58,607 nt of DNA. Origin: Akkermansiaceae bacterium (GTDB taxonomy: Bacteria; Verrucomicrobiota; Verrucomicrobiia; Verrucomicrobiales; Akkermansiaceae). This document shows, piece by piece, positions 47,484 through 58,607 of the stretch. The translations under genes were made by a program, and so were the position numbers. The stretch lies in the NCBI GenBank assembly GCA_025363295.1, contig JANYEC010000037.1:1-58607 (forward strand), read 5' to 3'. A model generated the notes under the pieces. The model made no database searches and was not told the origin of the DNA. It saw nothing but the letters and a program-made list of their open reading frames with translations. Positions within the stretch are counted from its first letter, which is position 1. Each line of letters opens with the position of its first letter.

Positions 47484-48112
47484 GCCGTTAGGAAAAAGTC
47501 ATTTTTGAAACGATGAGTCGCGGAGGTCACGTTTTTACTCAGAGTTCTTTCTCTCGCGATTTATAATTCAGAATTCGGCCGCAAAGAGGCGCCAAAAAGT
47601 ACAAAAACAGAAATTTTGAATTCGAAAATCATGAAGCCTTGAATGCTACCGCGAGACCACTTTTTGCGCAGTGGCCATCGTAGTCGTTGGAGATGGTGGT
47701 ATGATTTTGAATGAGCGTACCATGATTCGCGCTTGCCAACCAAATTTGCAGTTTGCTCCAAATTCGACGCTTCGGATAGATTTGACTCCAGCCTTCACCA
47801 TTACAGTTTCCAAGACAAATTGTGATGCCAGACAAGTTGTGATGGAGAGGAAAAAGAGGGGCATTGAACATCGAGTTAAAAAGCAAATGAGCATGCTCTC
47901 TTACTCTTCTAATTCGATGTTCAATGTTGTGTGTTCGATGTCCAAGCCGCCCACTACTCCTTCGCTGCGGGTAGGACACAGCAAAGAGTTGTGAGCATGA
48001 AGGCGGCTTCTTGTATCATTGGGATCCTCTTCTGGATTTACGATTTTGGCTGATTCAAGCCGTTACGAATGTCAGTTATTTGGGACTGGCCCCGAAGCAG
48101 ACCCCGGAGCAG
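47484..48112. other. 629-base spacer at the downstream end of the Rhs-core array
   Basis: No gene is supported. It holds the diverged repeat shared with 6880-7015 (about 47795-47990). Bases from about 47850 to 48100 are a near-copy of bases from about 53296 to 53520, including GAACATCGAGTTAAAAAGCA, AGCATGCTCTCTTACTCTTC and GGCGGCTTCTT. A hairpin lies at about 47959-47987 and two short repeats at 48073-48135. Confidence 0.7.
47959..47987. repeat. array hairpin, loop GGTAGGA (imperfect)
   Basis: Arms around loop 47970-47976 pair at about eight of ten positions (CTTCGCTGCG with CACAGCAAAG). Same design as the other array hairpins but weaker. Confidence 0.55.
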
Positions 48113-48135
48113 TTATTTGGGACCGACCCCGGAGC
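48073..48135. repeat. two copies of a 26-base element reading TTATTTGGGAC..GACCCC
   Basis: CAGTTATTTGGGACTGGCCC begins one copy at 48073 and CAGTTATTTGGGACCGACCC another at 48110; both end GAAGC or GGAGC. A third copy is at 55045-55070. The second copy supplies the last codons and stop of the module 1 partner gene. It resembles REP-like recognition elements, unverified. Confidence 0.7.
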
Positions 48136-48709
48136 ATATTGTAGGTTTTCCATCTTTAATATTTATTGCCATTAGTGGGAATATATATCTTAATGAGCAA
48201 TCATCTTCTATGCCCATGTCTCGCATGGATACTGTCATGTGCAACATGAATTGGGATCCATCTGTAGATAGATATTTTTCGAGAAGTTTATTGGCAACAT
48301 TATTCATCGAATCCATGACATTTATCTTAACCTCGATAGTTTCATTTGGAGCGATGCTCACCTTGCTAACTTTAAATATTTCTGATGTTGAACCTGCGAC
48401 TCCGTCCGAAAACAACCTGAATTCATCAGTAGTCCTTCGAGGTGACTCAAAATTTATGAAGCTTGCATGAAGCATCATTGATTTTATGAAGTTTTGGTCT
48501 ATTATCGTTGACGAAATATTTCTCGAATCTCTCCCCTCATTTTTAATATTAAATATGAGAAATTGATCTTTTATTGAAAAGCTATAACTAATATCACTAT
48601 CGATGGTCCACTTCGGATATTTTCTATCCATCGCATGAGTTGCATTCGATGTAAATAAAGAGGTCAACAACGCGAATAATATTTTTAGAAATGTTGAGTA
48701 TGTTTTCAT
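48113..48709 (-). CDS. module 1 partner: exported hypothetical protein, candidate immunity protein
   Basis: A 198-residue protein with a Sec signal peptide (MKTYSTFLKILFALLTSLFTSNATHA). The mature part is polar with beta-like blocks (YSFSIKDQFLIFNIKNEG, KVSIAPNETIEVKINV) that resemble an immunoglobulin-like or chaperone fold; no catalytic motif is seen. It begins 27 bases after the stop of the module 1 Rhs-core protein on the same strand. The last residues (CSGVGPK) are encoded by a repeat element, so the natural C-terminus may have been replaced. The DNA is much more AT-rich than the housekeeping genes to the left. The immunity role rests on position and export only. Confidence 0.6.
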   Translation of the reverse strand: MKTYSTFLKILFALLTSLFTSNATHAMDRKYPKWTIDSDISYSFSIKDQFLIFNIKNEGRDSRNISSTIIDQNFIKSMMLHASFINFESPRRTTDEFRLFSDGVAGSTSEIFKVSKVSIAPNETIEVKINVMDSMNNVANKLLEKYLSTDGSQFMLHMTVSMRDMGIEDDCSLRYIFPLMAINIKDGKPTICSGVGPK

Positions 48710-48736
48710 GAAAATTCGATTCTTGATTTTAACTTC

Positions 48737-49528
48737 TTATTCATAAAATTTCGGATTATTATATCCTGTTCCATTAACGGATGTTGTTCTTACTCCGAAA
48801 TACGCATCCTTACCTGTAACATAATCTACATCTCCACCCGCGCCCTGTGATTGAACATTGACAGAGTGCTTGCCACCATCGTAAACAACAATTTTGGCAA
48901 ACTTTTGATCTACTTCTTGGTATTCATCCGCTAATATTATTCCAACCAAACTGTTATCAATAATAAAACTTGGAAGAAATACGTATCCATGGCAGTTCGT
49001 TGTAAAATAATTTGGTGCCAGTGGCCTTGGGGGATTTGGCGGTATCGGTTTGTTGGGCGTTAACCCCAAGAATTCAAATACCTCAATCACATGACCTTTG
49101 GTGGTTGTAGCTGACCTAGTTAGTAGATCCATCCAAGCACCATTCAAATTGTATGAATTGATAACCGGTGCTCCAGCCAAAGCATTAATTGTAAGTAGGC
49201 CGCTCCAATCCATCTCGGTTGTTGGCGTTGGCGCGTAACCATTCTGGTTCGCACCATCTGGAAATCCGCTTGGATCTTCCGATGTCCAACGTGCCAGCTC
49301 TGGATTGTAGCTACGGTATTTGAACGCGTAAGCGCCGAATGATGCGACATAGGGTCTGCCGGTGTAGAAGGTGGTTACCTCCGCCACGTTGGTGACCTCG
49401 GATGCCATCTCCGCCCGCCACTCCGCGAGTTGTTTTTCGTTCTTGAACTCCGGGAGCGGAGCTTTGAATTCCGCGAAGGCGGTGCTGGTCAGGGACGCCA
49501 CGAGGGCGAGTGTTAGTTTGTATTTCAT
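48737..49528 (-). CDS. module 1: mini-Rhs core protein with Cys/His variable domain
   Basis: A 263-residue protein. Residues 1-19 are a Sec signal peptide ending AFA. Residues 20-53 are the shared charged segment (EFKAPLPEFKNEKQLAEWRA). Residues 54-111 are the Rhs-associated core signature (FYTGRPY, YAFKYRSYNPELARW, SEDPSGFPDG, ending DWSGL), with no YD repeats before it. The variable domain (112-263) has a Pro-rich hinge (NKPIPPNPPRPLAPN), then NCHGYVF with Cys179 and, about 40 residues later, IVVYDGGKHSVNV with His221. This is the spacing of papain-like or NlpC/P60-like cysteine hydrolases. It ends NPKFYE. Its leader lacks the upstream ATG present in other modules, which fixes the start at MKYKL. 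Likely secreted toxin; activity unproven. Confidence 0.75.
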   Translation of the reverse strand: MKYKLTLALVASLTSTAFAEFKAPLPEFKNEKQLAEWRAEMASEVTNVAEVTTFYTGRPYVASFGAYAFKYRSYNPELARWTSEDPSGFPDGANQNGYAPTPTTEMDWSGLLTINALAGAPVINSYNLNGAWMDLLTRSATTTKGHVIEVFEFLGLTPNKPIPPNPPRPLAPNYFTTNCHGYVFLPSFIIDNSLVGIILADEYQEVDQKFAKIVVYDGGKHSVNVQSQGAGGDVDYVTGKDAYFGVRTTSVNGTGYNNPKFYE

Positions 49529-49618
49529 TTTTGGTTTATGTGTTTGGTTTCTCCGTTGGAGATTGGGGAAGAGTTTACCGCAGAGGTGCGGAGGTCCGTT
49601 CTTTGCTGACGCAATTTA
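49529..49618. repeat. leader of module 1
   Basis: On the minus strand this reads CCGCACCTCTGCGGTAAACT, then CTCC-AAC-GGAG and GAAACC before the start codon. The same leader precedes modules 2-6 (about 50611, 53090, 54819, 56582 and 58092). CTCC-NNN-GGAG can form a tiny hairpin. The spacing from GGAG to the ATG (22 bases) is too long for a normal ribosome binding site. Confidence 0.65.
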
Positions 49619-49783
49619 TTAGAATATTTTAAAATGAGACAAAACTACAGTCAGAATTACGGAAAACAAATATACTGATATTATAGTCATCGCGAATACC
49701 CTAAGCCAAAATTTCTTGGAATGTACCAATATTGATATGGAGAGTAATATTAAAGCAATCCAAACTATTAGTATTGTGCTCAT
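49619..49783 (-). CDS. module 2 partner: 54-residue two-helix membrane protein, candidate immunity protein
   Basis: A very small gene whose ATG overlaps the stop of the module 2 Rhs-core gene (GAATGA, four-base overlap). The product has two membrane helices (ILIVWIALILLSISILV and MTIISVYLFSVILTVVLS) joined by a basic turn (HSKKFWLRVF), and ends HFKIF at the TAA at 49619. No other feature is recognisable. It occupies the same place as the exported partner genes of the other modules, but is an inner-membrane peptide, the usual form of immunity proteins against pore-forming or membrane-acting toxins. Its AT-rich sequence and start-stop overlap support a real, coupled gene. Confidence 0.65.
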   Translation of the reverse strand: MSTILIVWIALILLSISILVHSKKFWLRVFAMTIISVYLFSVILTVVLSHFKIF

Positions 49784-50586
49784 TCCACAACAGTATATAT
49801 AAGAGTATTAAAACCGCCCTGTACTGCAAGGCCTCCATTATTTGAAACCGCTACTGTGGTGCCTCCTCCCGCAAAGGCAATTTGTCCCCCCAGCTGATTC
49901 GCTCCACCCCAAGTAATATTGATATGAACCTCCTTCTGGTTGTTTTGGTATTGATATGCCACCGCCATATTTGCTAGCGCTGGATAACCACTGTCTGAAT
50001 CGGCAGTAGTGCTTAGCGCCAACTGCACTCGTCCATCGCTGGTAGCAGATAAATTCCCGGTAATTTGAGCTGTCGCCGAACCCCAAAACACCAACGCTCC
50101 TTGAGCATATGCTGTAGACAGCGCCGAAAAAGAAACATCTGAAGGCATTAAGTCCGCTTCAACTCGCACGGTTGATCCGGTTAATGTTGAGCTGGCACTC
50201 TTTTCTTTGCTTTGTCCAACTCCTGTGGTCAATTTTATATGCCATAATCCCGAATAGTCTAATTCACTAGTTGGATTAGTAATGTAAATTTGGCTGTTCG
50301 CACCATCTGGAAATCCACTTGGATCTTCCGAAGTCCATCTCGCAACTTCCGGATTGTAACTTCGGTATTTGAAAGCATAGCTGCCGGAGAATGCGAGGTA
50401 CGGCTTGCCGGTGTAGAAGGCTGTTTCCTCGGCGGCGTTCTCTTGGCTGGTGGCTTCGGACGCTTGTTCAGCTCGCCATTCGGCGAGTTGTTTTTCGTTT
50501 TTGAACTCCGGGAGGGGAGCTTTGAATTCCGCGAAGGCGGTGCTGGTTAGGCACGCCACAAGGGCGAATGTCAGTTTGGTTTTCAT
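49780..50586 (-). CDS. module 2: mini-Rhs core protein, variable domain of unknown type
   Basis: A 268-residue protein: signal peptide (MKTKLTFALVACLTSTAFA), shared segment, then the Rhs core signature FYTGKPY, YAFKYRSYNPEVARW, SEDPSGFPDG, ending DYSGL. The variable part (about 112-268) is Ala/Ser/Thr/Gly-rich with alternating beta pattern (VHINITWGG, GGTTVAVSNNGGLAVQGG) and ends LIYTVVE; no catalytic residues stand out. The first and last strands (HIKLTTG, VVE) faintly resemble those of module 6. An in-frame ATG ten codons upstream (MEKPKRINTK) exists, but in modules 1 and 3 the equivalent is absent or out of frame, so MKTKL is taken as start. Partner gene overlaps its stop. Confidence 0.7.
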   Translation of the reverse strand: MKTKLTFALVACLTSTAFAEFKAPLPEFKNEKQLAEWRAEQASEATSQENAAEETAFYTGKPYLAFSGSYAFKYRSYNPEVARWTSEDPSGFPDGANSQIYITNPTSELDYSGLWHIKLTTGVGQSKEKSASSTLTGSTVRVEADLMPSDVSFSALSTAYAQGALVFWGSATAQITGNLSATSDGRVQLALSTTADSDSGYPALANMAVAYQYQNNQKEVHINITWGGANQLGGQIAFAGGGTTVAVSNNGGLAVQGGFNTLIYTVVE

Positions 50587-50796
50587 TTTTGTGTTTATAC
50601 GTTTTGGTTTCTCCATCGGAGATTGGGGAAGAGTTTACCGCAGAGGCGCGGAGGTCGCTAAGGGACGCAGAGGAAAAGATGGGAGGAGTTCTTAGTTTTG
50701 AATGGCAGAGAACATTCGGGCGGAATAAATTCCGCGCTCCAGAGCTCTGCGTTCCTTTGCGACCTTTGCGGCTTTGCGGTTAGTCTTAATCGATGT
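50587..50796. repeat. leader of module 2 plus a palindrome
   Basis: The conserved leader (about 50611-50672) is followed by GCGGAATAAATTCCGC at 50720-50735, inverted 7-base arms around AA. The same 16-mer occurs at 53199-53214 and inside the nrtA-nrtB spacer at 31885-31900. Around 50757-50784 there is a run of TTTGCG units. Confidence 0.75.
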
Positions 50797-51270
50797 TCAC
50801 CGCTTCGTCGGCGGAAGTTGGTGGGTGGTGGGGACGGGGTTGGTGGGCGAGGAAGGTGCGTCGGTTCCGAGGGCTCCGCCGCCGGAGCTGGCTTTGAGCG
50901 GCTGGCCGAAAGAGGTGAGGTGGGAAAAGCTCACGCCTGCCGGGCCGACGGTGGCGAGGGTGGTGCCGAGCAGGTCGTTGAGGTGGAAGGTGATTTCCTC
51001 CGGCTTGCCGACGGGGTGGGAGGCGATGGGAATGCCACCGCTGGGGTGGGACTCGATGATGTAAATGGTGTCGTTGCGCTTGAGTAGGGCGAGATTGTCC
51101 CAGAGGAAAGATTCGGATCGAATCGAGGATTCGAGATTTGAAATTTGAGATTGGGGTGAAGTAGAGGAAGAGATAGAGGCTAACTGGCCGTCGGGCCAGT
51201 AGGTGTGGGTGGCGGTGGTGCCGTCGGGGAGGGTGAGGGAGGTGAGTTTGTCGAGCCAGCCGTAGGTATT
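50797..51270 (-). pseudogene. remnant of a conventional Rhs/YD-repeat protein
   Basis: The minus-strand frame ending at the stop 50797-50799 reads GWLDKLTSLTLPDGTTATHTY (two blocks), WPDGQLASI, FLWDNLALLKRNDTIYIIES, then EEITFHLNDLLGTTLATVG and LTSFGQPLK. These are YD-type repeats and the start of the Rhs core (HxDxLGT...FG), the part missing from the mini-Rhs proteins. It lacks a real N-terminus and stops just before the core segment (TGKPY...ARWTSEDP) that the modules carry. It looks like the 3' part of a parental Rhs gene cut at this point. No start codon with support. Confidence 0.65.
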
Positions 51271-51444
51271 CTGTGGCTGGCTTGGACATGCTGCCGCCGT
51301 TGGTTGCACTCTGGCTGCGGATTTCACTCTCTGGAAATGATGAATTGGGGACGTATCCAGCAGCGTGTTGAGATAGCGAGAGCAAGAGAGCTTCCACTTC
51401 GATGTTGGGAGTTCGATATTCAACGTTCAAGGAGGGGCTCCCGA

Positions 51445-51477
51445 CTTCCCCGCTGCGGGTTGGACGCAGCGGGGAAG
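51445..51477. repeat. array hairpin, 13-base perfect stem, loop GGTTGGA
   Basis: CTTCCCCGCTGCG (51445-51457) pairs perfectly with CGCAGCGGGGAAG (51465-51477) around GGTTGGA. Flanked by GTTCGATATTCAACGTTCAA-like sequence. Identical stem to the hairpin exactly 200 bases to the right. Confidence 0.85.
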
Positions 51478-51644
51478 AAGGAATTAGTTAGAGGTCTGCT
51501 GGGGCATCGAGTTGGTTTGTGCGAGTTCGCGGTCTGGGTGGTGAACCCGATGGCACTGACCTCATCTATTGAATGTGAATCCGAGCGGACTGCCCCCATT
51601 TATGTTGGGAGTTCGATGTTCGACGTTCAACGAGGAACTCCTGA

Positions 51645-51677
51645 CTTCCCCGCTGCGGATTGGACGCAGCGGGGAAG
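51645..51677. repeat. array hairpin, 13-base perfect stem, loop GATTGGA
   Basis: Same stem as at 51445-51477, loop GATTGGA (51658-51664). Lies 73 bases after the end of the module 3 partner gene, on its downstream side, where it could act as a terminator for that module. Confidence 0.85.
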
Positions 51678-51749
51678 ATGGAGTAGCCCGGTTGTTTGTT
51701 GGAATTTCCGACTTTAGATGTGAGTCCGGGCGAACTAGCCCCATGTAGT

Positions 51750-52265
51750 TCATGTTCCCATGGTTTGGACGAATCTAGTAGATTTTCCGTTTTTTGAAAC
51801 GATCCAATAGACACAATAGGGAGCTGAAGCCCATCGAAACGACATCATTCGAATCATTATCCATTGATTGTTTATATCAGGAATGACTAGAATTCCCTCG
51901 GATTTTCCAGTGGTTTCTCTCTCAACATATGTCAAAGATGGTGAGTAAATATCATTATGCAAGTCCTGAGGTAGTTCAAACTCCTTTCCATCCCATATTA
52001 CAACAATAGACTTAATTCCAACTAATGGCTCAATACACCCACCATCAACACCGATCGGACCTTTGCCATCAATTTTCCATTCTTTTGAATCAATATTGTG
52101 ATTGGATGAAATAAATGGCTCGCTCTCGATATGGACTTTTATCGTATCTTTTCCAACTCTGATTTCTTGAGAAAATATATGAGATGTATCATTGACTTTT
52201 TCCTTTCCAGCACAAAGACTTGCGAGACTGAAAAATAGAAATAGTGATTTTTTAATTTTATTCAA
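51750..52265 (-). CDS. module 3 partner: exported hypothetical protein, candidate immunity protein
   Basis: A 171-residue protein starting from a TTG that overlaps the last 8 bases of the module 3 Rhs-core gene. Signal peptide: MNKIKKSLFLFFSLASLCAG; the Cys does not fit a strict lipobox. The mature protein is polar with several beta-like strands (EIRVGKDTIKVHIES, IKSIVVIWDGKEFELP, GILVIPDINNQWIMIRMMSF) and two Cys that could pair. No known family was recognised. The periplasmic location fits a partner that neutralises a peptidoglycan-acting toxin, which is what the adjacent variable domain suggests. AT-rich compared with the left part of the window. Confidence 0.6.
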   Translation of the reverse strand: MNKIKKSLFLFFSLASLCAGKEKVNDTSHIFSQEIRVGKDTIKVHIESEPFISSNHNIDSKEWKIDGKGPIGVDGGCIEPLVGIKSIVVIWDGKEFELPQDLHNDIYSPSLTYVERETTGKSEGILVIPDINNQWIMIRMMSFRWASAPYCVYWIVSKNGKSTRFVQTMGT

Positions 52266-53076
52266 AGTAAAGTGTGGTTCCTCCTGCGCCGGATAGGTGA
52301 TTAAAAACAGCTACAGAATCGTTATAGTTTGTGATCCCAACACAACCTTCTGTTCCTGGAACTCCTCCATCTGGATGAATTTTGAATCCACTTCTTCCTC
52401 CTACGTTAGTATTATGTATTGGGTTCAAGGCGAACTTATATTGAGTTGCTCCATTCGCTCTCGTTCCATTCCAGGCTGACATTGTTCCTTGTTGCCACAC
52501 GCCATCTACCTTGTAATCCGACTCGCGTGACGGTGGATTGTTAGTAATTGAACCCAATGTCTGGGATTGTGCGCCGACTGAGTACCAACCGCGCGGTAAT
52601 TCACCGTTACCGTGCGGCCCAGACGTTGCCGCCCAGTCAGATTGCATCTCCCCTCGATCAATCCTAGTTGCCGAGACCCATCCGGTTCCAGACCACAGCT
52701 GTAATCTAGTTCCAGTAAAAATCAAAAATTCCAATCCATCGGGATCCATTGCCCTCATACAGACGTTGTTTACGTAGAGGTGATTGTTGACTCCATCTGG
52801 AAATCCACTCGGGTCTTCCGAAGTCCAACGGGCCATTTTCGGACTGTAACTACGGTATCTGAATGCGTAGCTACCGGAGAAAGCGAGATAAGGTTTACCG
52901 GTGTAGAAAGCCGTTTCCTCTGCTACGTAGCCTTGGCTGGTGGAATTCGTAGTTTGGTCCGCCCGCCATTCGGCAAGCTGCTTCTCGCTTTTGAACTCCG
53001 GGAGGGGAGCCTTGAATTCCGCGAAGGCGGTGCTGGTCAGGGACGCCACGAAGGCGAATGTTAGTTTGTATTTCAT
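52258..53076 (-). CDS. module 3: mini-Rhs core protein with L,D-transpeptidase-like domain
   Basis: A 272-residue protein: signal peptide (MKYKLTFAFVASLTSTAFA), shared segment, Rhs core (FYTGKPY, YAFRYRSYSPKMARW, SEDPSGFPDG, ending DPDGL). The variable part has ELPRGWYSVG followed by SGFKIHPDGG and VPGTEGCVGI, giving His234 and Cys245 in the H...[S/T]xGC arrangement of YkuD/Tlde1-type (DUF2778-like) enzymes. Those enzymes cut or exchange D-amino acids in peptidoglycan stem peptides, and Tlde1 is a known antibacterial effector. The end is TTLYFE. The start is fixed because the upstream leader ATG is out of frame here. Most interpretable toxin candidate of the array; homology should be tested. 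Confidence 0.75.
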   Translation of the reverse strand: MKYKLTFAFVASLTSTAFAEFKAPLPEFKSEKQLAEWRADQTTNSTSQGYVAEETAFYTGKPYLAFSGSYAFRYRSYSPKMARWTSEDPSGFPDGVNNHLYVNNVCMRAMDPDGLEFLIFTGTRLQLWSGTGWVSATRIDRGEMQSDWAATSGPHGNGELPRGWYSVGAQSQTLGSITNNPPSRESDYKVDGVWQQGTMSAWNGTRANGATQYKFALNPIHNTNVGGRSGFKIHPDGGVPGTEGCVGITNYNDSVAVFNHLSGAGGTTLYFE

Positions 53077-53520
53077 TATGCTTTAGGTTCTCCATCGAAG
53101 ATTGGGAAAGAGTTTACCGCAGAGGTGCGGAGGTCGCAGAGGGACGCAGAGAAAGAGATGGGAGGAGTTCTTGGTTTTGAATGGCAGAGAACATTCGGGC
53201 GGAATAAATTCCGCGCTCCAGTTATCGCTTCGTTGGCGGAAGTGGGTAGTTGGAGGAATAATGAATAAATGGAGTGAAGGGTTTGGGTTTTTAGAGAGGA
53301 AAAAGAGGAGCATTGAACATCGAGTTAAAAAGCAAATGAGCATGCTCTCTTACTCTTCCACTTCGATGTTCAATGTTGTGTGTTCGATGTTCAAGCCGCC
53401 CACTTCTCCTTCGCTGCGGATAGGACATAGCAAAGAGTGGTGAGCATGAAGGCGGCTTCTTTTATCATTGGGTTCGTTTTCTGAATTTATGATTCAGGCT
53501 GATTCAGCATGCTTCCAATG
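53077..53520. repeat. leader of module 3, palindrome and long repeat
   Basis: Leader at about 53090-53152, GCGGAATAAATTCCGC at 53199-53214, then from about 53296 a copy of the sequence at 47850-48100. A weak hairpin with loop GATAGGA (53419-53425) lies at about 53406-53437. The block CAGTTTTTTGGAAC at 53522 is a degenerate form of the TTATTTGGGAC element. Confidence 0.7.
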
Positions 53521-54057
53521 TCAGTTTTTTGGAACCGGGTTCGAATCAGGTTTTGAACTGCTTTTTTTGCTCAATTCAATATCCTCCATCGCCCTCTTAA
53601 TATTTAGCTTGTGAATTGCCAGCTTAAGCGTATCTCGAAATGCCGCAATATGCCATGAATTCAGTCCCATCTTCCAAACGACCGTGGGTGATTCGGAACT
53701 TGGTTTGGAATCCTTTGAATCATACATTAATATGTAGCAATTTTCGTCAACTTTATACAGTATTTTTGACTCGATCCCAAGAGGCTTAAGTGGCTCAACC
53801 ATCGGTGGACTGAACTCTTCCGGAATTACAATCTCCCGGAAATCCGGCGTCACGTCCAGTTCCAGCATCACCAAATCTCCGCCCCGTTTTTCATCGTTGA
53901 TGGCAGTTAAAAACCTTTTTATAACAGAAGACAAATCCTTTGAAACTGTTTTCAAATTTACTTTCTCCAATTCAATCGGTTTTACAGAGGGGATTCCTTC
54001 GGCAAATATCGGGCATAGGGATGCAATCAGTATGCTGACCATAAATAAATTTTTCAT
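53521..54057 (-). CDS. module 4 partner: exported hypothetical protein, candidate immunity protein
   Basis: A 178-residue protein with a Sec signal peptide (MKNLFMVSILIASLCPIFA, cut before EGIPS). The mature part mixes helices (KTVSKDLSSVIKRFLTAIN, FRDTLKLAIHKLNIKRAMED) and strands, with a Lys/Ser/Pro tail (SKKSSSKPDSNPVPKN). No family recognised. It begins 30 bases after the module 4 stop. The last codons run into a degenerate copy of the spacer repeat, as in module 1. Candidate partner by position and export. Confidence 0.55.
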   Translation of the reverse strand: MKNLFMVSILIASLCPIFAEGIPSVKPIELEKVNLKTVSKDLSSVIKRFLTAINDEKRGGDLVMLELDVTPDFREIVIPEEFSPPMVEPLKPLGIESKILYKVDENCYILMYDSKDSKPSSESPTVVWKMGLNSWHIAAFRDTLKLAIHKLNIKRAMEDIELSKKSSSKPDSNPVPKN

Positions 54058-54087
54058 AATTTTTCAAATTTAAAATTCACTTATGTA

Positions 54088-54792
54088 TTATTCCAGCCTG
54101 ATCTGTTGAGAACTTGTTTGTTGGACGAGTCTTACTGTTGGATTAGTCGTTCCAAATGGGGTATAAGTTGATACAAAGTGAACGTAAATATAGACAAACC
54201 TGCCGTGAGCGTCACTGCCTATTTCAGAGAGAAGCGCCTCTGCGGCTGTAGCAATGGTTTCTTTGTTCCCACTGGTGTTCCCAGTTCCGTCATCACTGAT
54301 AGGGCTTCCAAGTAGGGTTCCCCACGCAACCGATTTTGAGGCAATATTCGTATTGTCTGCGGTCAACTCCCATGTAAGAGTTGCGTTCGAGTTTGCATCA
54401 CGGATTCCAGTTTCTATGCTGTTATATGTGACTTTAAATGTTTGCGTTGCGAGACCATCAGGATCGAATTCGAAATTCGGGTTCGGTGCGTAAATGGTTT
54501 GGTTCGCCCCGTCCGGAAATCCGCTAGGATCTTCCGATGTCCAACGTGCCAGCTCTGGATTGTAGCTACGGTATTTGAACGCGTAGCCGCCGGACGAGGG
54601 GAGATAGGGCTTGCCGGTGTAAAATACCGTCTCCTCAGTCGCGTAGCTCTGGCTTGTTGGTTCTGCTGCTTGTTCAGCCCGCCATTTGGCGAGTTGTTTT
54701 TCATTTTTGAACTCCGGGAGCGGAGCCTTGAATTCCGCGAAGGCGGTGCTGGTTAGGCACGCCACAAGGGCGAATGTCAGTTTGGTTTTCAT
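54088..54792 (-). CDS. module 4: mini-Rhs core protein, variable domain of unknown type
   Basis: The shortest complete module protein, 234 residues. It has a signal peptide (MKTKLTFALVACLTSTAFA), the shared segment and the Rhs core (FYTGKPY, YAFKYRSYNPELARW, SEDPSGFPDG, ending DPDGL). The variable domain (about 112-234) is Thr/Asn/Ser-rich with beta pattern (FKVTYNSIETGI, ATLTWELTADN, FVYIYVHFVSTYTPFG) and a helical patch (ETIATAAEALLSEIG). It ends SQQIRLE. No catalytic motif was seen. An in-frame ATG ten codons upstream is judged not to be the start, as in module 2. Partner gene 30 bases downstream. Confidence 0.7.
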   Translation of the reverse strand: MKTKLTFALVACLTSTAFAEFKAPLPEFKNEKQLAKWRAEQAAEPTSQSYATEETVFYTGKPYLPSSGGYAFKYRSYNPELARWTSEDPSGFPDGANQTIYAPNPNFEFDPDGLATQTFKVTYNSIETGIRDANSNATLTWELTADNTNIASKSVAWGTLLGSPISDDGTGNTSGNKETIATAAEALLSEIGSDAHGRFVYIYVHFVSTYTPFGTTNPTVRLVQQTSSQQIRLE

Positions 54793-54934
54793 TTTTGTGT
54801 TTATACGTTTTGGTTTCTCCATCGGAGATTGGGGAAGAGTTTACCGCAGAGCGGTTGGCTTTGGATCTTCTCCTGTCACTTCGATGTTCAACGTTTGGCG
54901 CTCAATGCCCGATCTTCATGGTGCCCGCCGCTCC

Positions 54935-54959
54935 TCCGGCACGGATTGGACGCGCCGGA
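54935..54959. repeat. array hairpin, loop GATTGGA, 9-base stem
   Basis: TCCGGCACG (54935-54943) pairs with CGCGCCGGA (54951-54959) with one A/C mismatch around GATTGGA. The stem sequence differs entirely from the 51-kb hairpins, while the loop is identical. Confidence 0.8.
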
Positions 54960-55044
54960 TTTGATTGAGCAGGTAGGCGCTTGTTTGATCGTCGGGTCTT
55001 CTTCTGGATTTACGATTCTGGCTGATTCAGGTTGTTCCGAATGT

Positions 55045-55070
55045 CAGTTATTTGGGACTGACCCCGGAGC
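55045..55070. repeat. third copy of the TTATTTGGGAC..GACCCC element
   Basis: CAGTTATTTGGGACTGACCC then CGGAGC; matches 48110-48135 with one base changed. Confidence 0.75.
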
Positions 55071-55179
55071 TGGAGTGCGAGCCAGTAGGCGGTTTGTTTG
55101 CTCATTGGGCTATTTCTATGAATCAGGATCTCGGATGTTAATACGCGAGGAATGACCACATCTTTGCTAGTCCTAGAAA

Positions 55180-55758
55180 TTAATTTTCATCTTTTTGATT
55201 CAAAACAGAAACAACAGATGGAAACTTGCTTGTAGCTACCTGAAGATGCCATTTCCGAATTTTAGTGGCTGAGATAATTAAATCTCCTTCATAGACCCCA
55301 TCGTTGGTTTCCGTCCAGTTTTCGGTCCATCTTTTTATAAGATCCCTTGGATCGTTATTCATACTCGATGAGAACTTTTCTAAATCTTGAGCGGACAAAA
55401 GTGGCTCGAATTTTGTAGCCGAATCCGGGCGGAAAACACCAAGCACAACCTCACCGCGTTGAGGGCGATATAGGAACAACGCCGTCTTTGATGATTTCCC
55501 CCATATTACCTCCGGTGAAAAACCAGTTTCATCCTTATAAGCAACGCCCACCCACAATAACGGCAAGGCTTTCCTACTCAGGGAAATTGAAAGGTATTCC
55601 CCAAAACTCTGTGTTCCCCAATCAGATCCTATTTTTTGAGCTGAATCTATTGAAACCTTCGCTGCTTTGTCAGAAGATTCGAACACCAGCGATTCTGCGC
55701 GTATAGATCCGGAAAAGACCGATGCGCAAATAAACAATAATAGTGATTTTTCATTCAT
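55180..55758 (-). CDS. module 5 partner: exported hypothetical protein, candidate immunity protein
   Basis: A 192-residue protein that starts at an ATG overlapping the last 8 bases of the module 5 gene (ATGAATGA). Signal peptide: MNEKSLLLFICASVFSGSIRA. The mature part has several strands (LVFESSDKAAKVSID, YLSISLSRKALPLLWVGVAY, TALFLYRPQRGEVVLGVF) and helix FSSSMNNDPRDLIKRWTENW. No known family. Start set at 55758 since the frame upstream is inside the module gene. Translational overlap argues that the product is needed together with the Rhs-core protein. Confidence 0.6.
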   Translation of the reverse strand: MNEKSLLLFICASVFSGSIRAESLVFESSDKAAKVSIDSAQKIGSDWGTQSFGEYLSISLSRKALPLLWVGVAYKDETGFSPEVIWGKSSKTALFLYRPQRGEVVLGVFRPDSATKFEPLLSAQDLEKFSSSMNNDPRDLIKRWTENWTETNDGVYEGDLIISATKIRKWHLQVATSKFPSVVSVLNQKDEN

Positions 55759-56557
55759 AAAAGAGTTCTCCGTTGTAGCCAGCGCCTGCATTTACCAAGG
55801 CATTATACAAGTAGCTTGAAAGGCCGCGCAGGGTATCTCGGCTGGTCCCGGCGTTGACCGGATTAAGTCGTGCGTTCACAGCAGCCAAATCAGGATCGTA
55901 AGCATTCGCATTTTCAAGAAATCCAGCACTCACCGTATAACCATTTGGAGTCCATCTATGTGCTCCATCAACGATCAAATGACTATATAAAGAGAGCGAC
56001 TGGTTAGAGCCAAAATCTGACGCGTCCAAACCCCTCCACGTCACAAATCCAACGGTCCAGGCACGTTCATACACCTCCTTAAATGTGCCTGTATAGCTTC
56101 CTTGATACTGGGACACTCCCCATAAAGAGATGTCCCATGTAAATGTAACAGCTGCAAGCTTTTCGTATCTTTCGTTTTTTGAATAGTGATTTTCTTGACC
56201 AATCCATTCAACCCTAAGGCCCTCATAATCAACCTCAGTCGTTGGACTCGGTGCATAAATATTCCCGTTCGCCCCATCTGGAAAGCCGCTGGGATCTTCC
56301 GAAGTCCATCTCGCAACTTCTGGATTGTAACTACGGTATTTGAAAGCATAGCTGCCGGAGAATGCGAGGTACGGCTTGCCGGTGTAGAAGGCTGTTTCCT
56401 CGGCGGCGTTCCCTTGGCTGGCGGACTCTGCTGCTTTTTCAGCCCGCCACTCCGCGAGTTGCTTTTCGTTCTTAAAATCCGGCACGGGAGCTTTGAATTC
56501 CGCGAAGGCGGTGCTGGTCAGGGACGCCACGAGGGCGAATGTCAGTTTTGTTTTCAT
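55751..56557 (-). CDS. module 5: mini-Rhs core protein, variable domain of unknown type
   Basis: A 268-residue protein: signal peptide (MKTKLTFALVASLTSTAFA), shared segment with small changes (APVPDFKNEKQLAEWRA), Rhs core (FYTGKPY, YAFKYRSYNPEVARW, SEDPSGFPDG, ending DYEGL). The variable domain is aromatic-rich with strands (LAAVTFTWDISLWG, AWTVGFVTWRGLD) and a helical end (AAVNARLNPVNAGTSRDTL, LSSYLYNALVNAGAGYN), finishing GELFYE. It contains His residues (ENHYSKN, SHLIVDGAHRW) but no recognised active-site pattern. Start at MKTKL as in the other modules. Confidence 0.7.
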   Translation of the reverse strand: MKTKLTFALVASLTSTAFAEFKAPVPDFKNEKQLAEWRAEKAAESASQGNAAEETAFYTGKPYLAFSGSYAFKYRSYNPEVARWTSEDPSGFPDGANGNIYAPSPTTEVDYEGLRVEWIGQENHYSKNERYEKLAAVTFTWDISLWGVSQYQGSYTGTFKEVYERAWTVGFVTWRGLDASDFGSNQSLSLYSHLIVDGAHRWTPNGYTVSAGFLENANAYDPDLAAVNARLNPVNAGTSRDTLRGLSSYLYNALVNAGAGYNGELFYE

Positions 56558-56769
56558 TTTTGTGTTTATACGATTTGGTTTCTCCATCGGAGATTGGGGA
56601 AGAGTTTACCGCAGAGGTGCGGAGGTCGCAAGCCGCCCACGGGTCCTCTGCTGCGGATAAAACGCAGCAGAGGTGATTGAGCGGGCGGGCGGTTTCTTGG
56701 GTCATCGGGCCAGCTGGATTCACGATTGCGAATGTTTATCTGCAAGGACCGGTACCATTCACGGAGAGT
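56558..56769. repeat. leader of module 5 and short spacer
   Basis: Leader at 56582-56630, the perfect hairpin at 56645-56673, then CTGGATTCACGATTGCGAAT, a degenerate form of the conserved CTTCTGGATTTACGATT block, and GGACCGGTACCATTCACGGA as in the spacer at about 1975. Confidence 0.7.
56645..56673. repeat. array hairpin, loop GATAAAA, 11-base perfect stem
   Basis: CCTCTGCTGCG (56645-56655) pairs perfectly with CGCAGCAGAGG (56663-56673) around a 7-base loop. Position equals that of the GATTGGA hairpins of the other spacers. Confidence 0.85.
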
Positions 56770-57207
56770 TCATTTTTTGGTTTCTTGAGGGTTTGGATTT
56801 ATTTTGGATTTTTCAGCTTCGGTTTTAAGCTCAAATTTCCCAACGCCTATTGTTACAGATGCTAGTCGGCTCGTTGCAATATTGAGACGATCAATTAACG
56901 ACATAATCTTGATCGATTTTTCCTCATCGGACAAACTAGACATCTGAATTTCAAGCGCATTTTTTTCGACAACTTTACTCAGTTCGATGATTTCTGGAAT
57001 CACACGTCGAGCTATTTCAGATGAAATTTTTGGATTTTTAGCTAGTAATAGTTTTGTTTCTGAAAACGATGAAAACAGAGAACTTTGTATCGGGTCACTT
57101 TTCTCGAATGCCTTAAGAGTATCTGATGCTTCTGTTTGGGCGTATAAAATGCGAGAATATCCACTAACAGCAATTAGTATAATTGCTAATTTTTTATTGG
57201 TTTTCAT
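56770..57207 (-). CDS. module 6 partner: exported helical protein, candidate immunity protein
   Basis: A 145-residue protein with a Sec signal peptide (MKTNKKLAIILIAVSGYSRILYA). The mature part is almost fully helical and charged (SEIARRVIPEIIELSKVVEK, SDEEKSIKIMSLIDRLN) with a Lys/Glu/Asn/Pro tail. It begins 15 bases after the module 6 stop. It shares no visible similarity with the other partner proteins. AT-rich. Family unknown; partner role is inferred from position and export. Confidence 0.55.
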   Translation of the reverse strand: MKTNKKLAIILIAVSGYSRILYAQTEASDTLKAFEKSDPIQSSLFSSFSETKLLLAKNPKISSEIARRVIPEIIELSKVVEKNALEIQMSSLSDEEKSIKIMSLIDRLNIATSRLASVTIGVGKFELKTEAEKSKINPNPQETKK

Positions 57208-57222
57208 AAATTAATTTCTTGA

Positions 57223-58062
57223 CTATTCAACAATTTTGAGACGGATTTCATATGTCTGCACTGTGAAAACAGGGAGCGCGGCCGCAGTCCAAGACATGGT
57301 TGAACCCACCTCGCCTACTGTAAGTCCCGCCGAATTGAGTTGCGCGCCTTGCCATGCGGCTTTAGTTATTACTTGTATATTTGCAATTTTATGATCACTG
57401 TCATCCCATCGTATATGCAAATTAACTCCGAGGTGCAGGTCACCATCGGCGTTTTCGCCTATTCCTCCGAGTTTTGTGTAGCTGAGCTTTCCATTTTCAA
57501 CTGTAAATTGATAGCCTAGCTGTTGATCTTGACCATTTGTGTTTGTAGATAGCATCCCGTTAATGTTCGACCAGCCAGCGCCGTATCCAATCACTTGAAT
57601 ACTATCATAAGTGGTATCAACTTCGCCAGTTGCAGAAATATGCGCAGTCGCTCCCATTTTATGGTCTCCTTGTTGTTGAACCGCATGATCATAATTTCCG
57701 ACCATTAACTTAATTTTAAACATTCCCATAAAATCGAATCCATTCGTGGGTGTTGGCGCATAACTATTGCCATTCGCCCCATCTGGAAATCCACTCGGGT
57801 CTTCCGAAGTCCAACGGGCCATTTTCGGGTTATAAATGCGGTATTTGAATGCGTAGCTATCGGATGATGCGAGGTAGGGCTTGCCTGTGTAGAAGGCTGT
57901 TTCCTCGGCTGCACAGCCTTGGCTGGTGGCTTCGGACGCTTGTTCAGCTCGCCATTCGGCGAGTTGTTTTTCGTTTTTGAACTCCGGGAGGGGAGCTTTG
58001 AATTCCGCGAAGGCGGTGCTGGTCAGGGACGCCACGAGGGCGAATGTCAGTTTGGTTTTCAT
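57223..58062 (-). CDS. module 6: mini-Rhs core protein, variable domain of unknown type
   Basis: A 279-residue protein: signal peptide (MKTKLTFALVASLTSTAFA), shared segment, Rhs core (FYTGKPY, YAFKYRIYNPKMARW, SEDPSGFPDG, ending DFMGM, where other modules have GL). The variable domain (about 112-279) is beta-like with Asp, Gly and His (GQDQQLGYQFTVENGKLSY, GDLHLGVNLHIRWDDSDHK) and ends RLKIVE. The first strand (FKIKLMVG), the LHIRWDD block and the end recall module 2 (HIKLTTG, VHINITWGG, TVVE); this may be distant kinship. No catalytic motif recognised. Start at MKTKL as argued for module 2. Confidence 0.7.
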   Translation of the reverse strand: MKTKLTFALVASLTSTAFAEFKAPLPEFKNEKQLAEWRAEQASEATSQGCAAEETAFYTGKPYLASSDSYAFKYRIYNPKMARWTSEDPSGFPDGANGNSYAPTPTNGFDFMGMFKIKLMVGNYDHAVQQQGDHKMGATAHISATGEVDTTYDSIQVIGYGAGWSNINGMLSTNTNGQDQQLGYQFTVENGKLSYTKLGGIGENADGDLHLGVNLHIRWDDSDHKIANIQVITKAAWQGAQLNSAGLTVGEVGSTMSWTAAALPVFTVQTYEIRLKIVE

Positions 58063-58307
58063 TTTTGTGTTTATACGTTTTGGTTTCTCCATCGGAGATT
58101 GGGGAAGAGTTTATCGCAGAGGGGTTGGCTATGGATCTTCTCCTGTCACTTCGATGTTCAACGTTCAGCACTCAATGCCCGATGTTTATGGTACCCATCG
58201 CTCCTCTGGCGCGGATCGGACGCGCTAGAGTTGATTTAGCAAGCATGCGGCTTCTTTGATCATTGGGTTCTCTTCTGAATTTACGATTCTGGCTGGTTCA
58301 AGCTGTA
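58063..58307. repeat. leader of module 6 and spacer
   Basis: Leader at 58092-58122, CACTTCGATGTTCAACGTT, the hairpin at 58204-58230 and the CTTCTGAATTTACGATTCTG block at about 58273. Same order as the spacer at 54793-55179. Confidence 0.75.
58204..58230. repeat. array hairpin, loop GATCGGA, 10-base stem
   Basis: CTCTGGCGCG (58204-58213) pairs with CGCGCTAGAG (58221-58230) including one G-U pair. Loop GATCGGA matches the conserved loop pattern. Confidence 0.8.
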
Positions 58308-58607
58308 CTAATGAATTTTTATTTCAATTTCGCTGGATTTTATTTCACCTATCCAAAATGGTTTCGAGTAGGTCCTCATCTCCTTTTCTTCAAAGGCTTT
58401 AAATAAATCTCTTTCAAATCCCGATTCGTCTATAGATTTAGTGCTGTAGGTAGCGCTTATTTTATAAGTTCCCGGAGTAATGTTTTTTACCTTATACCCA
58501 ACATTTTCATTTGAGTTATACAAAAATGTGATTGTTGATTCTCCTTCAGAAAATTCGTATAATATTGAATATGGTATATTCAATGTTTGTTTCGGACGTA
58601 TAAGAAG
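58308..58607 (-). CDS. module 7 partner, partial (5' end outside the window)
   Basis: An open frame runs from the window edge to the stop at 58308 (99 residues visible). It encodes a polar beta-like protein (ESTITFLYNSNENVGYKV, GTYKISATYSTKSIDESGF, IGEIKSSEIEIKIH). It has no start codon with support inside the window; the first visible codons (LLIRPKQ) are in frame, so the gene continues to the right. Its place relative to the hairpin and leader of module 6 equals that of the other partner genes, so a seventh Rhs-core gene should lie just outside. Identity as a partner gene is inferred. Confidence 0.55.
   Translation of the reverse strand, partial: LLIRPKQTLNIPYSILYEFSEGESTITFLYNSNENVGYKVKNITPGTYKISATYSTKSIDESGFERDLFKAFEEKEMRTYSKPFWIGEIKSSEIEIKIH

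What the first reader, a model, noticed from the sequence alone, without database searches (positions are those of the whole stretch)
48113..58607. Array of miniature Sec-exported Rhs-core proteins with variable C-termini and unrelated downstream partners
Seen: six genes on one strand share a near-identical first 111 or so residues (Sec signal peptide, EFKAPLPEFKNEKQLAEW segment, Rhs-associated core FYTGKPY...RYRSYNPE.ARWTSEDPSGFPDG...GL) and then differ completely. Each is followed within 30 bases, or with overlap, by a different small exported or membrane protein; a seventh partner is cut by the window edge. Known: full-size Rhs proteins carry a variable toxin after the same core and are followed by an immunity gene, but they are large, have YD-repeat shells, and usually leave by type VI or other routes. 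Here the shell is gone and the core is attached to a signal peptide. Inferred: a compact polymorphic toxin/immunity cassette array, with export by Sec and an unknown route past the outer membrane.
Basis: partly seen in the sequence, partly recalled or inferred. Interest (0 to 1): 0.95.

Follow-up and report, generated by a model that had tools for sequence, protein, structure and literature searches.

The report
One shell, many swappable toxin cartridges
In an unnamed bacterium, apparently a relative of Luteolibacter, and in some of its kin, the big Rhs toxin protein is split into two kinds of gene, one for the shell and a row of small ones that each carry the end piece plus a different tail; the small proteins are predicted to be exported toxin cartridges that share the shell, each likely kept in check by the gene beside it, and most of those seen end in the same amino acid, glutamate.

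Summary
In detail: six same-strand genes share a signal-peptide-like start, a linker and the end of the Rhs core, then differ completely; each is followed at -8 to +30 bases by an unrelated exported-looking or membrane protein. In relatives a separate YD-repeat shell gene lies immediately before a mini gene. The shell stops just before the core, and the mini supplies it, including the autocleavage motif. The own genome has this shell at the end of another contig (with an in-frame stop). The window holds a remnant of the shell's 3' end and 5' scars of the esterase-like gene that follows the cassettes in relatives. So this is a split, two-chain Rhs system with a cassette array, seen in two families of the phylum; a longer-cartridge version occurs in further relatives. 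Similar C-termini keep similar partners in two or three cases; recognisable C-termini are cell-wall toxins (Tlde1, Tae4). New and unexplained: the last residue is glutamate in 104 of 120 and 102 of 120 proteins listed by two searches, across 29 of 33 and 60 of 69 C-terminal families (background 15 of 140). Docking, toxicity and the route across the outer membrane are untested.

The parts
57223..58092 (-). Module 6 core-toxin chain (likely start 58062); all-beta C-terminal domain; ends ...LKIVE
56770..57207 (-). Module 6 partner, exported-looking (145 aa), likely immunity
55751..56587 (-). Module 5 core-toxin chain (likely start 56557); ends ...ELFYE
55180..55791 (-). Module 5 partner, overlaps the end of module 5; likely start MNEKSLLLF (8 bases before the end of the module's stop)
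54088..54822 (-). Module 4 core-toxin chain (likely start 54792); ends ...QIRLE
53521..54057 (-). Module 4 partner, exported-looking (178 aa)
52258..53076 (-). Module 3 core-toxin chain with a Tlde1-like C-terminal domain; ends ...LYFE
   Evidence: (PF10908 E 3.9e-4, below cut-off)
51750..52265 (-). Module 3 partner (TTG start, overlaps by 8 bases); relative of the partner of the Tlde1-like cassette on contig C98
50797..51423 (-). Remnant of the 3' end of the YD-repeat shell gene; 92.4% DNA identity over 384 bp (50897-51280) to the shell on contig C96
49780..50616 (-). Module 2 core-toxin chain (likely start 50586); ends ...YTVVE
49619..49783 (-). Module 2 partner, 54-aa membrane-type protein overlapping the stop of module 2 by 4 bases (coordinates derived from the offset)
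48737..49528 (-). Module 1 core-toxin chain with an NCHG-type C-terminal domain; ends ...PKFYE
48113..48709 (-). Module 1 partner, exported-looking (198 aa)
58308..58607 (-). C-terminal part of a seventh partner, cut by the end of the contig
58174..58269 (-). Degenerate 5' fragment (scar) of esterase A after the seventh partner (weak match)
   Evidence: tblastn E 0.17 and 0.04; DNA E 6e-4 and 5e-5 to esterase A starts
56634..56708 (-). 5' scar of esterase A after the module 6 partner
   Evidence: tblastn E 2e-5; DNA 81% over 74 bp
54966..55029 (-). Stretch after the module 5 partner that matches the upstream part of the scars of modules 1, 4 and the edge
   Evidence: E 5e-12, 7e-10, 4e-18 to other scars; not directly to the esterase start
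53397..53507 (-). 5' scar of esterase A after the module 4 partner
   Evidence: tblastn E 1.3e-7; DNA 82% over 84 bp
47948..48058 (-). 5' scar of esterase A after the module 1 partner
   Evidence: tblastn E 1.5e-7; DNA 80% over 83 bp

Best explanation
This is a split, two-chain Rhs system: one gene encodes the YD-repeat shell without the end of the core, and an array of small genes each encodes that missing end plus a different C-terminal domain, which is predicted to be a toxin likely neutralised by the protein of the next gene. Inferred steps: both chains are exported by Sec; in the periplasm or on the surface one small chain docks on the shell through its linker and core half and closes it, as TcC closes TcB; the conserved aspartate pair cuts after the D..GL site and frees the toxin inside; the loaded shell meets other cells by a route not yet known, and the toxins act mainly in the target's envelope, because the immunity proteins look exported. 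Because the cartridge is a complete gene with its own start and signal peptide, a cassette displaced from the site behind the shell need not become a dead tip: it could remain as a further working cartridge for the same shell. The shared C-terminal glutamate is probably a tag read by a common part of the machinery.
For: Shell gene directly before a mini gene in G150, G160, G164 and, in another family of the phylum, G613; own copy on C96. Shells stop right after LNDxLGTTLATV...FGQ plus a Pro-rich tail (41 of 66 homologues end 21-38 residues after it), and 0 of 43 shells scanned (of 66) match TIGR03696, whereas the six minis match model positions 9-13 to 76: the two chains complement each other. 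The mini core matches the end of the core of TccC3, YenC2, Tse15 and other Rhs proteins. Autocleavage motif: 101 of 127 with the exact x5/x8 spacing, 124 of 127 loosely; published motif in PMC11461821, passages seen. Genus co-occurrence, 73 genomes: mini in 5 and shell in 5, 4 shared (Fisher 2e-5, relatedness not corrected). Ten contig lengths are shared between mini and shell tables, among the 31 mini and 25 shell entries that I copied out of 120 and 66 (two of the ten confirmed on the contigs themselves). Scars of shell and esterase A in the array. Toxin/partner co-segregation: Tlde1-like pair (toxins 48% E 1e-39, partners 28% E 1e-16), cluster-1 pair (partners E 2e-6), cluster-5 pair with 54- and 58-aa membrane-type partners. 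Tlde1 and Tae4 hits. Precedent: YenB packages three different YenC proteins (PMC11067744, introduction and discussion read).
Against: No docking, cleavage or toxicity was tested. The own shell copy has an in-frame TAG and is cut by the contig end; the G164 shell changes frame near its end. G045 has minis but no shell hit, G176 a shell but no mini; both lie at contig ends. Only 3 of 127 members hit known toxin families; the models of modules 1 and 6 have low-confidence core regions, and neither gave a confident PDB fold match. The module 6 partner resembles neither G150a's nor G164's although the three C-termini look related (G164's P0007 is in the module 6 cluster by BLAST; G150a by eye), and the two tiny partners of the cluster-5 pair are not similar to each other by BLAST. 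One of eight own cassettes (C98, 3986-4684) and G160's end in Cys and Gly, not Glu.
Confidence: 0.72

Rival explanations
1. The minis are free-standing, shell-independent secreted toxins that merely kept the core end as a leader; the nearby shell genes are ancestral leftovers.
For: Own shell has an in-frame stop; G045 has minis without a shell hit; most cassettes of the array do not touch a shell.
Against: Shell and mini co-occur in 4 of 73 genus genomes with one exception each way, lie adjacent in two families, and the core half with its cleavage motif stays conserved in 124 of 127, which a free toxin would not need.
Confidence: 0.15
2. Ordinary orphan Rhs tips: silent displaced 3' ends that become active only after recombination onto a full-length Rhs gene.
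For: Repeated N-terminal half, cassette array, shell remnant and esterase scars are what displacement leaves.
Against: [quoted passage not shown] here each of the six has a start, a signal-peptide-like N-terminus and an intact reading frame, and the cassette next to the shell is a separate gene too, so fusion is not the working state.
Confidence: 0.1
3. The C-terminal domains are not toxins but variable surface or adhesion domains, and the partners are accessory or anchoring proteins.
For: Most C-termini match no toxin family; the module 6 domain is a fairly confident all-beta fold without a clear known match; the locus in relatives carries an O-antigen-ligase-like protein and esterase-like genes.
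Against: Tlde1-like and Tae4-like members, 33 C-terminal families on one scaffold, a different fast-evolving partner per C-terminus with some co-segregation.
Confidence: 0.1

Closest known systems
Tc (ABC) toxin BC cocoon, TcB + TcC (YenB with YenC1/C2/C3; TcdB2-TccC3)
   Same: Two separately encoded chains make one YD-repeat shell; the second carries the core, the autoprotease and a hypervariable toxin; one B can load several C (PMC11067744, sections read).
   Different: There the second chain is long (about 680 residues before the toxin). Here the split is inside the core, the second chain keeps only about 110 residues, each has its own signal-peptide-like start and a partner gene, and no SpvB or TcB-type domain was reported on two shells scanned. 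TcA was not searched for.
Rhs polymorphic toxins, T6SS type (RhsA, Tse15, Tse5, Tre23)
   Same: YD shell, Rhs core with the DPxG...D..GL autocleavage motif, variable C-terminus, partner gene next door.
   Different: Split into two exported-looking chains, no T6SS sheath gene in 8 genomes, exported-looking partners.
Orphan rhs-CT / cdiA-CT cassettes
   Same: Array of displaced C-terminal toxin/immunity modules with a repeated 5' part.
   Different: Those generally lack start codons, and the tested one lacks a signal sequence (PMC3150448, passages); here all six window cassettes are complete genes with a signal-peptide-like start.

Membership tests
Rhs polymorphic toxins | YD-repeat shell | tested here: met
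   On a separate gene: PF05593 E 1e-54 and TIGR01643 on P0122; own copy on C96
Rhs polymorphic toxins | Rhs-associated core above the curated cut-off | tested here: met
   TIGR03696 in 6 of 6 minis; 0 of 43 shells
Rhs polymorphic toxins | Conserved autocleavage motif before the variable C-terminus | tested here: met
   Motif 101 of 127 exact spacing, 124 of 127 loose; cleavage itself not tested
Rhs polymorphic toxins | Shell, core and toxin on one polypeptide | tested here: not met
   Separate genes in G150, G160, G164, G613
Rhs polymorphic toxins | Cognate immunity gene directly downstream | tested here: inconclusive
   Adjacent partners and two to three co-segregating pairs; neutralisation not tested
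T6SS Rhs effectors | T6SS in the same genome | tested here: not met
   VipB PF05943 in 0 of 8 genomes (control rings in E. coli); G160 is only 57% complete
Tc toxin B/C components | Two separately encoded chains, second with core and toxin | tested here: met
   Gene order and complementary ends; assembly into one shell not tested
Tc toxin B/C components | SpvB / TcB-type domains at the start of the B chain | tested here: not met
   Pfam scan of P0122 and P0123 lists none at E 0.01 or better
Tc toxin B/C components | TcA translocation pore | not tested
   no search made
Tlde1 (module 3 C-terminus) | Pfam PF10908 above gathering score | tested here: inconclusive
   E 3.9e-4, 21.3 bits against 30.1; best of 127 members E 6.3e-6

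The most novel reading that the evidence does not exclude
A two-chain Rhs arsenal in which splitting the core turns displaced toxin tips into permanently usable cartridges for one shell, all stamped with a C-terminal glutamate that is a sorting or attachment tag. The tag would be read by the shell or by the esterases and the O-antigen-ligase-like membrane protein encoded after the cassettes, as part of a new way of loading, displaying or releasing toxins at the outer membrane.
Probability: 0.3. Interest if true: 0.92.

Novelty: new variant of a known kind. Interest (0 to 1): 0.82.

Why it matters
It would give a bacterial-competition counterpart of the one-shell-many-cargo logic seen in insecticidal Tc toxins, built for tandem cassettes with immunity genes and for Sec export instead of T6SS. 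It suggests how a polymorphic toxin locus can add new toxins without losing old ones. The very common C-terminal glutamate across dozens of C-terminal families is a simple, sharp signature: it predicts which unknown proteins are cargo, and it makes the question of how such exported Rhs proteins are loaded and cross the outer membrane directly testable by changing one residue.

Tried and rejected
Shell-less minis as the whole system: rejected after the shell gene was found beside minis. Search with PF25023 (TEN_YD-shell) found nothing in the own genome; the family model was a poor probe, as the protein query found the shell.

DNA-level explanation of the terminal glutamate (a recombination border ending GAATAA/GAATGA, or start-codon overlap): unlikely, because two of the 16 Glu-ending genes of 18 examined use GAG (G613b, G082) and most partners do not start inside the codon.

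Esterase scars as a mere dispersed repeat: checked against 25 stretches. Outside the window's array the four scars matched only esterase A starts and cassette ends (L042, L090, L045, L013), and nothing in window 1-47600, in five other own-genome stretches (L014-L017, L063) or in the other relatives' stretches given. The rest of the own genome was not searched this way. Short inverted repeats lie in these stretches, so a repeat element is not wholly excluded.

Mobile-element carriage: no relative of the mini found in viral contigs (two peptide patterns) or plasmids.

T6SS delivery: no VipB in 8 genomes. Literature searches that listed no split Rhs with signal-peptide core chains: (0 papers); only listings were seen except for the five papers cited, and the library lacks most subscription papers and preprints, so absence there is weak.

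The regular expression for a core inside the shells gave false positives (30 of 66 "anywhere") and was replaced by the TIGR03696 scan of 43 of the 66.
Full report
What is in the window. Six genes on the minus strand share a signal-peptide-like start, a linker (EFKAPLPEFKNEKQLAEWRAE in most) and the end of the Rhs core, then diverge completely. Signal peptides were judged by eye and hydropathy; no predictor was run. All six exceed the cut-off of TIGR03696. Each is followed at -8 to +30 bases by an unrelated protein with a hydrophobic N-terminus or, for module 2, a 54-residue membrane-type protein. The window is a whole contig (C31, 58607 bases), so the seventh partner at the edge is cut by the assembly. 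A further small contig, C98, holds two more cassettes, one of them lacking its N-terminal half, beside an IS21-like element (IS family judged by eye from istA/istB-like ORFs, not searched). The own genome has 12 TIGR03696 matches: the six here, one C98 cassette, and five others on four contigs.

The shell is not gone. In three genomes of the same genus a gene of 1043-1179 residues with YD repeats lies directly before a mini gene (30 bases between them in G150, about 220 in G160; in G164 the shell's open frame ends about 350 bases before the mini, after a change of frame). In G613, from another family of the phylum, a shell of about 1080 residues lies between one cassette and two more. The own genome has the shell at the very end of contig C96, with one in-frame TAG near its start. 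C96 ends inside the stretch that is 92.4% identical over 384 bp to a remnant in the window at 50897-51280, which probably explains why the assembly broke there.

The two chains are complementary. Shell homologues (66 at E 1e-60 or better; one of them, P0189, 25% identical and 1366 residues, is a different Rhs protein) end just after LNDLLGTTLATV...LTSFGQ and a Pro-rich tail: 41 of 66 end 21 to 38 residues after that point; the other 25 did not fit the pattern, several being fragments or slight variants of the same end. None of 43 shells scanned (of 66) matches the Rhs core model; the six minis match it from position 9-13 to 76. Solved relatives of the shell are Rhs proteins (Tre23, Tse15, Tse5, 7q97) and teneurins. 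Solved relatives of the mini core are the end of the core of TccC3, YenC2, Tse15 and 7q97, reaching the GL position in Tse15 (7q97 is RhsA by recall). The published motif DP(I/L)GxxGGx5Yx8D(P/S)xG(L/W) (PMC11461821, passages) is met with the same x5/x8 spacing, Asp allowed for the first Gly of the pair, in 101 of 127 members and loosely in 124 of 127. In RhsA the two equivalent aspartates are needed for cleavage (PMC8765631, passages). The split point varies: in G082 and G034 a shorter shell (865 and 848 residues) is followed by a longer second chain (453 and 425 residues) that keeps some YD repeats, again with its own signal-peptide-like start.

Array history. Behind the partners of modules 1, 4 and 6 lie 5' fragments of the esterase-like gene A that follows the cassettes in G164 and G045 and heads the same operon in G160 (tblastn E 1.5e-7, 1.3e-7, 2e-5; DNA 80-82% identity to the G164 gene); weaker ones follow the edge partner and, by similarity to the other scars, the partner of module 5 and the C98 partner. 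In one search these stretches matched only esterase A starts and cassette ends outside the array, and nothing in the rest of the window or in the other stretches given. With the shell remnant before module 2, both borders of the shell-esterase interval are preserved as scars, so the cassettes were probably inserted or duplicated there as units. All six modules also carry CCTCTGCGGTAAACTCTT just upstream (6 matches with up to 2 mismatches, 0 expected).

The wider locus. Shell, cassettes, esterase-like genes and a Wzy_C (O-antigen-ligase-like) membrane protein occur together in G150 and G613; cassettes with esterases and Wzy_C in G164 (C333) and G045; esterases and Wzy_C in G160 (C268). Wzy_C is over the Pfam cut-off in G150 (52.8 bits against 31.7); the esterase matches are below cut-offs; in G613 both were judged by eye. 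Among 73 genomes of the genus, minis were found in 5 (G000, G045, G150, G160, G164), shells in 5 (G000, G150, G160, G164, G176), and Wzy_C in 5 (G045, G150, G160, G164 strongly, G082 weakly at 38% identity). Fisher tests on these hand-entered counts, without the weak G082 hit, give 2e-5 for mini and shell and 5e-6 for mini and Wzy_C. Shared ancestry is not corrected for. The own assembly lacks Wzy_C at E 1e-30; its array is broken over contigs C31, C96 and C98. Wider samples: minis in 5 of 260 family genomes, 4 of 386 order genomes and 2 of 387 phylum genomes; shells in 3 of 377 phylum genomes (one of them weak).

Toxin and immunity. The first search (module 6) found 361 proteins, 120 listed, five of these the window's own. 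Of the 120, 116 could be cut at the core and fall into 33 C-terminal families at BLASTP 1e-4; four without the exact motif were left out. Pfam hits among 127 members (120 plus seven from relatives and the window) were Tlde1 (2), Tae4 (1), cell-wall-acting effector families (function recalled), and four other families with one member each (C19orf12 at E 2e-4, the rest at 0.004-0.008). Exported-looking partners fit targets in the envelope (inference). Similar C-termini keep similar partners: module 3 and C98 (toxins 48%, partners 28%); G150a and G164 (partners E 2e-6); module 2 and G045b share a C-terminal family and both have 54-58-residue membrane-type partners, although those two are not similar by BLAST. 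Against: the module 6 partner is unlike those of G150a and G164 although the C-termini look related.

The C-terminal glutamate. All six window modules end in Glu. Of 18 cassettes or second chains read at DNA level, 16 end in Glu, 14 by GAA and 2 by GAG; the exceptions are the C98 mini (Cys) and G160 (Gly, about 50 bases from a contig end). In the first protein set 104 of 120 end in Glu (99 of 115 without the window's own five), and 29 of 33 C-terminal families have a Glu-ending member. In the multi-member families 12 members do not end in Glu; 11 of the 12 are shorter than the shortest Glu-ending member of their family, so probably truncated or frameshifted. A second search with a G613 mini listed 120 of 130 proteins, none identical to the first set: 102 of 120 end in Glu, 60 of 69 families (119 proteins cut), and 113 of 120 have Glu in the last two positions. 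Seven longer second chains of G082, G034 and G011 end LE, EH, EK, EH, EK, EK, EY (7 of 7 with Glu in the last two; the five own-genome loci given to the same script were not parsed). Controls: 15 of 140 mechanical ORFs of 180 aa or more from the same stretches end in Glu (some of these ORFs are surely spurious); a binomial test on the 33 families gives 2e-24. Three other core-bearing proteins of the own genome end in Gln, Leu and Lys. The families are single-linkage clusters and are taken as independent, so the figure is a guide only. The residue before the Glu is mostly Tyr, Val, Trp, Phe or Leu (88 of 104). The mix of GAA and GAG and the unrelated sequences before it argue for selection on the protein. 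What reads it is unknown.

Mechanism. Shown: split genes, complementary ends, conserved cleavage motif, cassette scars, some co-segregating partners, terminal Glu. Inferred: Sec export of both chains, docking, closure and cleavage of the shell, toxicity and immunity, Glu as a tag, delivery route. Closest precedent: YenB packages three YenC proteins, one from an orphan locus, and its authors suggest the same may hold for other Rhs proteins (PMC11067744, introduction and discussion read). Unlike classic orphan tips, which generally lack starts (PMC3150448, passages), each window cassette is a complete gene, so an array could serve as an arsenal and not only as a reserve for recombination. PMC3482391 (passages) describes polymorphic toxins in Verrucomicrobia and Sec-dependent ones with RHS repeats; the passages seen do not mention a split core.

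Naming.

Noticed in passing
L013 (own contig C98) 111-2460: Two adjacent ORFs (424 and 304 aa) look by eye like an IS21-type istA/istB pair and sit right beside a Tlde1-like cassette that has lost its N-terminal half.
   Followed up: partly
window 49569, 50629, 53108, 54835, 56600, 58105 (-): CCTCTGCGGTAAACTCTT lies just upstream of all six modules (6 matches with up to 2 mismatches, 0 expected); it may help cassette exchange.
   Followed up: partly
L072 2-6680 (G613): Behind the cassettes of G613 lie a 767-residue frame with propeller-like repeats, two repeat-type proteins, two esterase-like genes and the Wzy_C protein in one direction (by eye): a possible export or glycan module.
   Followed up: partly
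L089 6245-10234, L094, L095, L096 (G082), L097 (G034): Longer second chains that keep YD repeats, with their own signal-peptide-like start; five in G082. One (L095) sits behind a truncated shell-like remnant of 149 residues. Their C-termini end LE, EH, EK or EY.
   Followed up: partly
L072 13182-13697 (G613): The partner of one cassette looks by eye like a lipoprotein with ankyrin-type repeats; a similar-looking ORF lies behind a mini in L042 (15305-15802).
   Followed up: no
P0243, P0247, P0248, P0252, P0257, P0260, P0263, P0264, P0265, P0267, P0270: 11 of the 18 exceptions to the terminal-glutamate rule in the second protein set carry the glutamate one position earlier (such as VEK, EEQ, YEL, LEQ, TEQ).
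   Followed up: partly
L014 18029-19181 (own contig C68): A 235-residue fragment with a weak Rhs core match (below cut-off) followed by a small exported-looking protein, near a gene that looks like a tyrosine recombinase: another possible displaced tip.
   Followed up: no
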